DNA from: a virus
DNA: 64,000 nucleotides
IMG/VR virus record: IMGVR_UViG_3300032087_005453
Span: 43,437 to 107,436 of that record
Strand: one strand, 5' to 3'
The position numbers and the translations under genes were made by a program. The notes beneath the pieces were generated by a model. That model worked only from the letters and a program-made list of their open reading frames with translations, made no database searches and had not been told where the DNA came from. Each line of letters opens with the position of its first letter. Within the stretch, counting starts at the first letter, position 1. Positions 37,448 to 63,510 of this stretch are shown piece after piece.

Positions 37448-37978
37448 CTAACTGCTGTTTAAGTGAGGTAGCTCACATCTAGGTATTTGACATTTATCAC
37501 ATATTTCATGCCATCTATTTGGTAAATCTTCAAAATTGTACACCTCTACACCAAGATCTTCACCGTAGAGTCCTTGTGTGAAAAACTGCGTAGTGTGATC
37601 CATCCAGTTGTCTTCAAAGAATTTCATGTGGTCTTCAATCGCTAAAAAGTCTTTTATCTCATCTGCTACCGGCTCCAGAATCTTATTCTGGTCTTTTTTT
37701 AATTTTTGAACCCAATTATTCATACTTGTGAATCTATCTTGTATAGGTCTATGAACAGCAAACCTGTATATGTCGTTCCATTCTCTAATGTAGCCTTTCA
37801 GTACTGCGGCTGTCTGATGACCTTGGCATCTTTCAAATTCTCTGACAAACATGGGTACTGTGCTAACCAGAGAGGGTATGCCGTGACCAACACAAGTGGA
37901 TGCAATGGCATTTTTTATAGAGTTTCCTCCAGTTCTTGGTATATGTATAAAAACAGCTCTTTTGGGTAAATATATCAT
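37448..37978 (-). CDS. Sulfotransferase-like protein
   Basis: A 176-residue protein. The N-terminal VFIHIPRTGGNSIKNAI is the 5'-phosphosulfate-binding loop of carbohydrate sulfotransferases that use PAPS. The later RFAVHRPIQDRFTSMNNW fits the 3'-phosphate-binding region (R-P...R--S). It is shorter than typical family members (about 250-300 residues). It could sulfate a surface sugar of the host or virion. ATG 37978 overlaps the stop of the methyltransferase gene (ATGA) and has GAGG upstream; an earlier ATG at 37990 is less likely. Confidence 0.7.
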   Translation of the reverse strand: MIYLPKRAVFIHIPRTGGNSIKNAIASTCVGHGIPSLVSTVPMFVREFERCQGHQTAAVLKGYIREWNDIYRFAVHRPIQDRFTSMNNWVQKLKKDQNKILEPVADEIKDFLAIEDHMKFFEDNWMDHTTQFFTQGLYGEDLGVEVYNFEDLPNRWHEICDKCQIPRCELPHLNSS

Positions 37979-60021: not shown

Positions 60022-60098
60022 AGAAAAACGGGGTGGCCGCCAATCCCGGCAGTTGAGACCGGGTCGGAAGATTGTAGAAAGATCGCCCCCATTTTCTC
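60021..60098 (+). ncRNA. Structured 3' region before cassette B1
   Basis: GAGAAAA (60021-60027) pairs with TTTTCTC (60092-60098), and GGGG (60030-60033) with CCCC (60087-60090). Inside, CCCGG (60045-60049) pairs with CCGGG (60059-60063). The result is a branched RNA between the stop of 59914-60021 and the repeat at 60105. It may protect the mRNA end or be a small RNA; the class is not recognised. Confidence 0.45.
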
Positions 60099-60104
60099 AT
60101 TAAT

Positions 60105-60136
60105 GACCGCGACGGAGCGGGGCCAATGGCCCGCTC
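60105..60136 (+). repeat. Family B double-hairpin element, copy 1
   Basis: GACCGC followed by GACGGA, then GAGCGGG paired with CCCGCTC (60115-60121 with 60130-60136) and inner CC/GG. CCGC (60107-60110) can alternatively pair with GCGG (60117-60120). A B-type promoter follows, whose -10 ends 110 bases from the first base. Confidence 0.85.
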
Positions 60137-60186
60137 ATGTATTTTGGTAATCTTTCTGAATAAATCCCATCTTTTGACTTAAGATG

Positions 60187-60214
60187 TTGACAACAAGCGT
60201 CGATATAGTACAAT
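60187..60214 (+). promoter_or_regulatory. Promoter, TTGACA-N16-TACAAT with GTCGAT box
   Basis: Perfect -35. In family B the GTCGAT box is six bases after the -35, not two. It drives 60251-61368. Confidence 0.88.
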
Positions 60215-60250
60215 AAGGAAGTAACGCAGACCACTAAAAGGGAAAGACAA

Positions 60251-61380: not shown

Positions 61381-61422
61381 GGGTAGGCACCGGATGGAAT
61401 GTAAGGCCGCCGGTGTCTACCC
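61381..61422 (+). ncRNA. Very stable 13-bp hairpin before cassette B2
   Basis: 61381-61393 pairs with 61410-61422 over 13 bases with a single G-U, around a 16-base loop that contains AAGGCC. No U-run follows, but repeat B2 begins 15 bases on. It looks like a protected 3' end or small RNA. It can be compared with the branched structure before B1. Confidence 0.6.
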
Positions 61423-61436
61423 AACTCCTTAATAAT

Positions 61437-61468
61437 GACCGCGACGGAGCGGGGCCTGTGGCCCGCTC
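61437..61468 (+). repeat. Family B double-hairpin element, copy 2
   Basis: Identical to copy 3 from GACCGC through CCCGCTCATGTA. GAGCGGG and CCCGCTC form the main stem. The -10 of the next promoter ends 110 bases from the first base. Confidence 0.87.
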
Positions 61469-61518
61469 ATGTATTTACGATTCTTTTCCTACAAAGTCCC
61501 AAAATTGTGCTAAAGGTG

Positions 61519-61546
61519 TTGACAAAGCATGTCGATATACTATAAT
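61519..61546 (+). promoter_or_regulatory. Promoter, TTGACA-N16-TATAAT with GTCGAT box
   Basis: Both hexamers are perfect sigma70 consensus. GTCGAT is six bases after the -35. It drives 61571-62395. Confidence 0.9.
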
Positions 61547-61570
61547 AAGGGAAAACAAAGGGAAACTAAA

Positions 61571-62155: not shown

Positions 62156-62395
62156 ATGCAGGACGATGGCCCAAAATTCGTAAGTATGGCACAACAGAGA
62201 AGGAAAGAAATGGCAGACCGTAAGCTATTCCTAACCAAAGTTGAAAACCAGAGATTCAAGACTGCCGAAGTCAGAACACTGGGCACATTTATCGGGATCG
62301 CAAAATCTTGGGTGGATGATGACGGGATTGCCCGCTTTGAAGATCTCAACGGCGGGATCTGGGATGAACGTGATCTCAAGAACTTCGTCCTATAA
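62156..62395 (+). CDS. 79-residue protein of unknown function
   Basis: MQDDGPKFVSMAQQRRKEMA, then a strand-rich part (VRTLGTFIGIAKSWVDDDGI) and NGGIWDERDLKNFVL. The stop is immediately before repeat B3. No known motif. Confidence 0.72.
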   Translation: MQDDGPKFVSMAQQRRKEMADRKLFLTKVENQRFKTAEVRTLGTFIGIAKSWVDDDGIARFEDLNGGIWDERDLKNFVL

Positions 62396-62396
62396 T

Positions 62397-62428
62397 GACC
62401 GCGACGGAGCGGGGCCTGTGGCCCGCTC
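62397..62428 (+). repeat. Family B double-hairpin element, copy 3
   Basis: Directly after the preceding stop codon. The 32 bases are identical to copy 2. The -10 of the next promoter ends 110 bases from its first base, the same distance as in copies 1 and 2. Confidence 0.87.
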
Positions 62429-62478
62429 ATGTAATTCGGAATCTTTTCTGAATAAGCCCTGTTTTTTAGCTCAAGTTA

Positions 62479-62506
62479 TTGACAAACATGGTCGATATAG
62501 TACAAT
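62479..62506 (+). promoter_or_regulatory. Promoter, TTGACA-N16-TACAAT with GTCGAT box, upstream of an RNA locus
   Basis: Second part of cassette B3. The expected transcription start near 62513 is about 15 bases before the tRNA-like element. No coding start is near, so the first product is RNA. Confidence 0.88.
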
Positions 62507-62527
62507 AAGAGCACAAGAGAACAATGA

Positions 62528-62663
62528 AGCGGATTGGTGTAGATTGGTTAACACAGCTACCCGCTCCTTTTGCGAGGGATGACCTCCGAGCAGGAGGGAG
62601 ACCAGCAGGTTAGGTCAGCCTGTTGGGAGGTAGAAGCAGTTGGTTCAAATCCAACATCCGCTA
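62528..62663 (+). tRNA. tRNA-like gene with expanded anticodon arm (136 nt)
   Basis: The acceptor AGCGGAT (62528-62534) pairs perfectly with ATCCGCT (62656-62662), with discriminator A62663. A D-arm (GTGT 62537-62540, ACAC 62551-62554, loop containing TTGG) and a T-arm (GTTGG 62639-62643, loop TTCAAAT, CCAAC 62651-62655) are canonical, as are position 8-9 bases and a variable loop of 4-5 bases. The anticodon stem can be CTACC (62557-62561) with GGTAG (62629-62633), but it holds about 67 bases where 7 are normal. Within are CCTCC/GGAGG (62583-62587, 62593-62597), CCAGCAGG/CCTGTTGG (62602-62609, 62619-62626) and a small CTTTTGC loop at 62567-62573 that could present UUU. CCA is not encoded. Confidence 0.65.
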
Positions 62664-62664
62664 G

Positions 62665-62744
62665 CTTACACTGTAGGTCGAAAGACTGAACAACGAGGCG
62701 TCAAATGTCCACGCCTACAACCCCGCAAGGGGAGAGAGTGTAAG
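62665..62744 (+). ncRNA. Cloverleaf-like structured RNA with two GNRA tetraloops
   Basis: CTTACACT (62665-62672) pairs perfectly with AGTGTAAG (62737-62744). Inside are three hairpins: GTC-GAAA-GAC (62677-62686), AGGCGT/ACGCCT (62696-62701 with 62711-62716) and CCCC-GCAA-GGGG (62721-62732). GTAGG (62673-62677) could instead pair with CCTAC (62714-62718), giving a second conformation. It lies between the tRNA-like gene and the 62784 coding region, as a leader or separate RNA. I recognise no known riboswitch or ribozyme. Confidence 0.6.
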
Positions 62745-62783: not shown

Positions 62784-62990
62784 ATGGAACCTGACAAAGA
62801 AACATTTGAGGCGATCATCGCAGACCTAGAACTGACGCTGTCTGATGAAAAAAAGATGTTTTCTAATCAGAACCCAAAAGCTTGCGATCTGGCGTGGAAC
62901 CCAAGAGCTTATGATCTGGGGTGGGAAACTGGGTTTGAAGCCGCCATAAATCAGATCAAACGGAGAAAAAAACTATTTATTGGTGATTGA
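62784..62990 (+). CDS. 68-residue protein of unknown function
   Basis: MEPDKETFEAIIADLELTLS, an internal repeat NPKACDLAW/NPRAYDLGW, and a basic KRRKKLF end. TTTTGGAGAAAACG before the ATG is a good ribosome site. The gene shares its transcript with the structured RNAs upstream. Function unknown. Confidence 0.75.
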   Translation: MEPDKETFEAIIADLELTLSDEKKMFSNQNPKACDLAWNPRAYDLGWETGFEAAINQIKRRKKLFIGD

Positions 62991-63012: not shown

Positions 63013-63510
63013 ATGGTACAAGACAAAAGCAAAGTTTTTCAAAAGGCACTGGAAATGAGCAACGTCAAACCACGAGTTGAAACAAGCTGCGAAGTTCTAG
63101 AACACGTTGATCCTACCAAAAAGGTCCGCGTGTATCGCAATCTTCACAAGGATTGCATCAGTGTCCGGCAAGGTAATCTGGTTAAGTGCCACACTGACAA
63201 TGTGATTTTGCGGGACTTCAAGACAATCGTCAGCAAGGCTGGTCAGGATCGGGTTCGTAGAGAGAAAGCGAAAAATGTTCATGCCTTCATTGAAGGTTAC
63301 GTCGTTAGTCATACGGAGACTTACCGGGATGAAAACCAGCAAAAACTATTTGACTTCGAGTGGGGAGAATTGTACTACAACCCCTACAAAACAGACGACT
63401 GGACGGAACTTGAAACGGGCAAAGCTGTTGACTGTGGAGAGTATGCTGATATCGCTACTAATTTTGTTCTGGCCTCTAATTACCTTTACAGCACTTCTGC
63501 TGGAGCTTAA
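63013..63510 (+). CDS. 165-residue protein of unknown function
   Basis: Starts MVQDKSKVFQKALEMSNVKP. The sequence has beta strands around residues 40-85 (VRVYRNLHKDCISVRQGNLV), a basic middle (GQDRVRREKAKNVHAFIEGY) and an acidic C-terminal half. It resembles small phage DNA- or RNA-binding proteins only in general terms. ATG 63013 has AAGGA seven bases upstream; a GTG at 62980 also opens the frame. A TTGACA-N16-TAGAAT sequence overlaps this start. Confidence 0.65.
   Translation: MVQDKSKVFQKALEMSNVKPRVETSCEVLEHVDPTKKVRVYRNLHKDCISVRQGNLVKCHTDNVILRDFKTIVSKAGQDRVRREKAKNVHAFIEGYVVSHTETYRDENQQKLFDFEWGELYYNPYKTDDWTELETGKAVDCGEYADIATNFVLASNYLYSTSAGA

What the first reader, a model, noticed from the sequence alone, without database searches (positions are those of the whole stretch)
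62528..62663. tRNA-like gene with about 60 extra bases in the anticodon region
Acceptor, D-arm and T-arm are all perfectly paired with canonical loops, but the anticodon stem encloses about 67 bases, themselves folding into two or three hairpins. It is too short for a self-splicing group I intron, and the phage is bacterial by every other sign, so an archaeal-type intron is unlikely. It could be a decoy for tRNA-processing enzymes or anticodon nucleases, a tRNA mimic, or an unrecognised small intron. A dedicated promoter lies just upstream.
Basis: partly seen in the sequence, partly recalled or inferred. Interest (0 to 1): 0.85.

Follow-up and report, generated by a model that had tools for sequence, protein, structure and literature searches.

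The report
Phage tRNA mimic with conserved tail
A phage gene shaped like a transfer RNA, with a folded RNA domain where the anticodon should be, is joined to a strongly conserved 80-base tail, and the same two-part RNA recurs in dozens of environmental phages, which makes it a widespread and apparently undescribed class of viral RNA.

Summary
The tRNA-like body (62528-62662) is real: acceptor, D and T arms pair, and the anticodon stem encloses 67 nt holding two hairpins. This 3' domain is highly conserved and covaries strongly (50 double-sided changes against 11.5 expected). It recurs in at least 40 other environmental viral contigs, in compact form in the cultured Tetrasphaera phage TJE1, and alone in some small-genome bacteria. 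In 32 of 48 element loci a tRNA-like cloverleaf ends at most 3 nt before the domain (29 at exactly 2 nt), against 1 of 960 shuffled controls. Acceptor sequences differ but pairing is kept. The anticodon loop is replaced by 21-157 nt in nearly all. One contig has circularly permuted tRNA modules in front of the domain. No Rfam 15 family covers the composite. It is not a decoding tRNA and does not look like an intron. Most likely it is a stable, early tRNA-mimic RNA: the body engages tRNA-handling machinery, while the 3' domain blocks the tRNA 3' end and carries the conserved function. The anatomy is firm; the function is inferred.

The parts
62380..62510 (+). repeated early module: GC-rich terminator-like hairpin followed by a sigma-70-like promoter (TTGACA 62479-62484, TACAAT 62501-62506)
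   Evidence: three copies at 60088, 61420, 62380, 74-75% identical; promoter scan 11/12 matches
62528..62534 (+). acceptor stem, 5' strand AGCGGAT (7 bp with 62656-62662)
   Evidence: sequence; acceptor covaries in 11 loci
62537..62554 (+). D arm GTG / CAC with GG in the loop
   Evidence: sequence; same arm in homologues
62557..62633 (+). anticodon stem CTACC / GGTAG enclosing 67 nt in place of the anticodon loop
   Evidence: sequence; equivalent stem closing 21-157 nt in homologues
62564..62600 (+). insert hairpin H1 (CTCCTTTTGC-GAGG-GATGA-CCTC-CGA-GCAGGAGGGAG); contains TGACCT 62580-62585
   Evidence: folds
62602..62626 (+). insert hairpin H2 (CCAGCAGGTT-AGGTC-AGCCTGTTGG); AGGTCA 62612-62617 is complementary to TGACCT of H1 (possible loop-loop contact, untested)
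   Evidence: folds; direct reading
62639..62655 (+). T arm GTTGG-TTCAAAT-CCAAC
   Evidence: sequence; covariation
62656..62664 (+). acceptor 3' strand ATCCGCT, then N73 = A and G; no CCA; fixed 2-nt link to the 3' domain
   Evidence: offset is exactly 2 nt in 29 of the 32 loci with a tRNA-like body
62665..62744 (+). conserved 3' domain: P1 CTTACACT/AGTGTAAG; GUA/UAC; hairpin a GGTC-GAAA-GACT; GAACAACGA; hairpin b GGCGT..ACGCC; TACAA; hairpin c CCCC-GCAA-GGGG; AGAG
   Evidence: covariance model hits; covariation 0/500 shuffles
62784..62990 (+). first ORF downstream, orphan; in L084 and L116 a separate promoter and other genes follow the RNA, so it is not a conserved partner

Best explanation
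The locus encodes one composite noncoding RNA of about 220 nt. Shown: the 5' module is a tRNA-like body whose anticodon loop is replaced by a phage-specific structured domain; the 3' module is a conserved domain of about 80 nt joined to the acceptor end by N73-G; the composite recurs in many phages. Inferred: it is made early from its own promoter. Host RNase P and other enzymes that read the tRNA elbow treat the body as a tRNA. Because position 73 runs almost straight into an 8-bp helix and the anticodon is gone, the RNA is neither charged nor used in decoding and stays as a long-lived tRNA mimic. The 3' domain is the conserved functional core (a protein-binding or catalytic site). The tRNA body tethers it to, or ties up, a host tRNA-handling factor, and the variable insert supplies phage-specific contacts. 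The stated confidence is for this mechanism; for the anatomy and the existence of the family it is about 0.95.
For: The 3' domain is found in 12 contigs besides the window, 11 with ordinary-order tRNA-like bodies of different sequence. Covariation of the 3' domain: 98.1% of cells paired, 50 double changes against 11.5 expected, score 0.452 against 0.122, 0/500 shuffles. Acceptor plus T arm in 11 loci: 98.5% paired, 44 double changes against 14, score 0.977 against 0.262. A tRNA-like body ends next to P1 in 32/48 element loci, 29 at exactly 2 nt, against 1/960 shuffled upstreams. Rfam's own tRNA model finds several bodies across the long insert (42-52 bits). U33 and an anticodon loop are not conserved. 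L125 carries two circularly permuted tRNA modules, each followed by the domain, so elbow shape rather than translation is what is kept. Own promoters lie upstream in the window, L084 and L116.
Against: No expression data. The tRNA finder used for homologues requires pairing, so covariation of the arms is partly conditioned on that; the shuffle control answers this only statistically. 16 of 48 element loci are scored without a tRNA-like body, including small-genome bacteria (L199, L228, L229), and phage TJE1 has none visible, so the 3' domain can work without it. L243 has a body of ordinary length. The nearest relatives by terminase (such as the L022 record) lack the element with model R1. No shared protein partner was found.
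Confidence: 0.42

Rival explanations
1. Processing-module model: the tRNA-like body only serves to release the 3' domain with a precise 5' end (cut after N73 by RNase Z or by the domain itself, which would be a small ribozyme); the free 80-nt RNA is the product and the body a by-product.
For: The 3' domain exists alone, before terminator-like hairpins, in small-genome bacteria and is far more conserved than the body. The junction is fixed at N73-G. Many invariant unpaired bases are what a catalytic or ligand site would show.
Against: The bodies carry large structured inserts inside a kept anticodon stem, which a mere processing signal would not need; L125 keeps permuted bodies that cannot be cut like a tRNA 3' end; no match to any known ribozyme family in Rfam at these loci.
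Confidence: 0.22
2. Y RNA-like Ro60 partner: a tRNA-mimic RNA that tethers a phage or host Ro60 (TROVE) protein.
For: L125 permuted modules give a sub-threshold YrlA match (30.8 bits, gathering 69). The 340-kb and 459-kb element phages encode full Ro60-type proteins.
Against: No TROVE gene in the window's 107-kb record or in ten of the twelve other phage records with the element, most of them fragments. None of seven named Ro60-encoding phages has the element with model R1; six re-tested with R3 give only one weak, unconvincing hit. A Ro60 phage record without the element exists. The window RNA is not permuted and has no stem joining its two ends.
Confidence: 0.12
3. tRNA gene with a small, unrecognised intron; the insert is spliced out.
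For: The insert sits inside the anticodon stem of an otherwise good tRNA body.
Against: Loop ends do not rebuild a 7-nt loop with U33; insert 21-157 nt with no shared ends; too short for group I; permuted bodies in L125; leaves the 3' domain unexplained.
Confidence: 0.06
4. Decoy for host anticodon nucleases or other tRNA-cutting defences.
For: Early promoter, phage setting, tRNA clusters near some copies.
Against: No anticodon loop is kept in the window and most homologues, so the cut site is absent; a decoy does not need the highly conserved 3' domain.
Confidence: 0.07
5. cis-regulatory leader of the downstream genes (riboswitch-like).
For: No terminator was found between the RNA and the ORF at 62784.
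Against: Downstream genes differ between phages, and in L084 and L116 a new promoter follows the RNA.
Confidence: 0.06

Closest known systems
Bacterial Y RNA, YrlA (Rfam RF02553; described in PMC8394870)
   Same: a tRNA-like module (D, T and acceptor arms) that does not translate, attached to a second functional domain; L125 shares even the permuted order
   Different: in the window and most homologues the tRNA is not permuted; the second domain is a separate 3' domain and not a stem joining the two ends; YrlA gathering score not reached; no constant link to Ro60
tmRNA (Rfam RF00023)
   Same: tRNA-like domain with a long insertion
   Different: full D stem and separate anticodon stem; no tmRNA match at this locus; no tag ORF recognised; no CCA end
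canonical tRNA / intron-containing tRNA
   Same: acceptor, D and T arms with canonical loops
   Different: no anticodon loop, attached 3' domain, no CCA
GOLLD and ROOL RNAs (PMC12286853)
   Same: structured phage RNAs near tRNA islands; L125 has a GOLLD next to the two elements
   Different: no Rfam match at the window; far smaller here
plant-virus tRNA-like structures
   Same: viral RNA imitating a tRNA
   Different: those lie at genome 3' ends of RNA viruses; this is a DNA phage gene (from general knowledge)

Membership tests
canonical tRNA (RF00005) | acceptor, D and T arms with canonical loops | tested here: met
canonical tRNA (RF00005) | 7-nt anticodon loop with U33 | tested here: not met
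   67-nt insert; U33 not conserved in homologues; ARAGORN none; Rfam 19.3 bits under 29
canonical tRNA (RF00005) | aminoacylation / use in translation | not testable with these tools
   needs biochemistry
intron-containing tRNA | removal of insert restores a standard anticodon loop | tested here: not met
   loop ends CG...GA give no U33 loop in the window; same in most homologues
tmRNA (RF00023) | match to the tmRNA model | tested here: not met
   no match at the locus; the only clear tmRNA-like match of the record is elsewhere, at G000:947-1165
YrlA / bacterial Y RNA (RF02553) | match to the YrlA model | tested here: not met
   none in the window; L125 30.8 bits, gathering 69
YrlA / bacterial Y RNA (RF02553) | partner Ro60 (TROVE) protein | tested here: inconclusive
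   present in 2 of 13 element phage records, absent from the window's fragmentary record; named Ro60 phages lack the element
GOLLD / ROOL | match to the Rfam model | tested here: not met
   no match in the window; GOLLD only as a neighbour in L125
any described RNA family (Rfam 15, 4227 models) | 3' domain reaches a gathering score | tested here: not met

The most novel reading that the evidence does not exclude
A new, widespread class of viral RNA: tRNA-shaped scaffolds with an interchangeable folded domain in place of the anticodon, locked by a two-base link to a conserved, possibly catalytic or protein-binding 3' domain, with the tRNA part sometimes circularly permuted. It would be a natural counterpart of the laboratory 'tRNA scaffold'.
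Probability: 0.65. Interest if true: 0.88.

Novelty: categorically new. Interest (0 to 1): 0.84.

Why it matters
Dozens of environmental phages share this RNA, the open-access papers searched here do not describe it, and no Rfam model covers it. It suggests that phages use tRNA shape for something other than decoding, in two topologies (direct and permuted), and it links that shape to a very conserved small RNA domain that some small-genome bacteria also carry alone. A cultured phage (TJE1) with a compact copy of the 3' domain makes part of it testable now.

Tried and rejected
Group I intron, tmRNA, GOLLD/ROOL: no model match at the locus. Anticodon-nuclease decoy: no anticodon kept. Ro60 partner: pursued and found not specific. 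Kissing-loop dimer idea: palindromic hexamers in 36 thinned inserts 57 against 43.5 +/- 6.1 in shuffles, CTAG cores palindromic in 16 of 24; suggestive only, relatedness not removed, and the window insert has no palindrome but has complementary loops TGACCT/AGGTCA. Anti-Shine-Dalgarno-like CCUCC stretches in some inserts: seen by eye, not general, dropped. Pattern CAAATGTCC-N6-ACAACCC brought mostly unrelated loci. Genome-contig pattern hits L195-L198, L200, L201 and viral hits L183, L187, L190 look like chance matches. The weak model hit in the 635-kb record LR745206 does not look real. The phylum of the small-genome bacteria was not established; genome sizes of 0.4-2.0 Mb in the searched group would fit Patescibacteria.

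Full report
Observation. The window is the last 64 kb of a 107,436-base virus record. At 62528-62662 the sequence reads as a tRNA cloverleaf with all arms paired and canonical D and T loops, and an anticodon stem (CTACC/GGTAG) that encloses 67 nt made of two hairpins. ARAGORN finds no tRNA in the window, and Rfam at gathering thresholds finds nothing. A permissive scan of the region gives only a misregistered tRNA match below threshold. The stretch folds better than all 200 dinucleotide shuffles (z -4.06). The cloverleaf (-54.5 kcal/mol) is not preferred by energy over an alternative (-55.1), so the D and anticodon arms rest on comparison. A sigma-70-like promoter matching 11 of 12 consensus bases lies at 62479-62506. 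It is the last part of a 131-nt terminator-plus-promoter module present three times in this early region.

Right after the acceptor stem come N73 (A), G, and then an 80-nt structured domain at 62665-62744. In L084, a contig found through a neighbouring gene (68% identical protein), the same position holds a tRNA-like body of quite different sequence followed by a nearly identical 3' domain whose outer helix carries a compensatory change.

Size of the family. A gap-tolerant pattern built after the first divergent homologue (L125) found the domain in more viral contigs and one bacterial contig. A covariance model recovered it in 11 of 38 searched records with E-values from 4e-10 to 1e-27. Hosts are unknown for almost all. 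One cultured phage, Tetrasphaera phage TJE1, has a compact copy at 37754-37836 in a stretch without annotation. Small-genome bacteria carry the domain without a tRNA-like body; L228, L229 and L199 show a terminator-like hairpin downstream.

Tests. On 16 distinct sequences the 3' domain has 98.1% of cells paired, 13 pairs with double-sided changes, 50 cells with double changes (shuffled 11.5) and a covariation score of 0.452 (shuffled 0.122), none of 500 shuffles reaching any of these; sliding the partners destroys the signal. That alignment was fitted to the model, which leans towards the structure. The inner GUA/UAC pairing never varies and is therefore untested. Acceptor and T arm in 11 loci, aligned without gaps, give 98.5% paired and a score of 0.977 against 0.262. 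In 48 element loci with enough upstream sequence, 32 have a tRNA-like body ending next to the domain, 29 at exactly two bases, against 1 of 960 dinucleotide-shuffled upstreams. Some of the other 16 fail because of strict limits rather than true absence (L258, for example, has a body 14 nt before the core; L125 has permuted ones).

Anatomy across the family. In nearly all bodies an anticodon stem encloses 21-157 nt; U33 is not conserved and no standard anticodon loop can be rebuilt. L243 is an exception with an ordinary length of 70 nt. Rfam's own tRNA model aligns several bodies across the insert at 42-52 bits. In L125, inside a tRNA cluster next to a GOLLD RNA, two modules have the order T arm, closed acceptor hairpin, D arm, with the anticodon stem open, and each is followed by the domain. 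This is the circular permutation known from YrlA. What is kept is therefore tRNA shape plus the 3' domain, not decoding.

Function. The inferred mechanism is a stable tRNA mimic: processed at its 5' end like a tRNA, closed at its 3' end by the domain's first helix, unable to decode, and bringing the conserved domain to (or occupying) a tRNA-handling factor. Nothing here shows expression, processing or a partner. The processing-module or ribozyme model is the main rival. A Ro60 link was tested: two very large element phages encode full Ro60-type proteins. But seven named Ro60 phages lack the element with model R1, and a Ro60 phage record without it exists, so the link is not specific on present data.

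Known or not. The library of papers searched (open-access PubMed Central) gave Y RNA, GOLLD/ROOL and jumbo-phage reviews but no description of this composite among the listed papers. Subscription papers and preprints were not searched, so earlier description cannot be ruled out. On the tests run it fails membership in tRNA, tmRNA, YrlA and GOLLD/ROOL and is filed as a new class, with tRNA mimicry itself a known principle.

Noticed in passing
L114:947-1110 (record G000, outside the window): A tmRNA-like gene that seems to lack the 3' tRNA half: tmRNA-type 5' end and first pseudoknot, possible tag frame GCA GAA CCT AGT TTT GCT CTG GCA GCG TAA (AEPSFALAA*), then a second knot or terminator. Rfam tmRNA 55.9 bits on a short slice, 40.5 bits in the whole record.
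   Followed up: partly
60088-60218, 61420-61550, 62380-62510: Repeated terminator-plus-promoter module in front of three early operons.
   Followed up: no
L089:3313-3461; L116:5-171; L085:464-625: tRNA-like bodies with inserts, or degenerate versions of them, without the 3' domain in related phages.
   Followed up: partly
L125:3220-3475 (minus strand): Two permuted tRNA modules each followed by the 3' domain, downstream of a GOLLD RNA in a dense tRNA cluster.
   Followed up: partly
L203 and L204: Full-length Ro60-type (TROVE) proteins in 340-kb and 459-kb phage contigs.
   Followed up: partly
L280:3342-3412: RAGATH-1 hammerhead ribozyme about 1 kb from an element copy.
   Followed up: no
L098:3340-3462: Another tRNA-like gene with about 50 extra bases in a phage tRNA cluster of 20 genes, without the 3' domain.
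   Followed up: no
inserts of the tRNA-like bodies, e.g. L184, L277, L289, L321: Recurring palindromic hexamers (NCTAGN, TGATCA) that might allow loop-loop dimers; weak statistics.
   Followed up: partly
63013-63510: Downstream gene matches Pfam Phage_L5_gp82.
   Followed up: no
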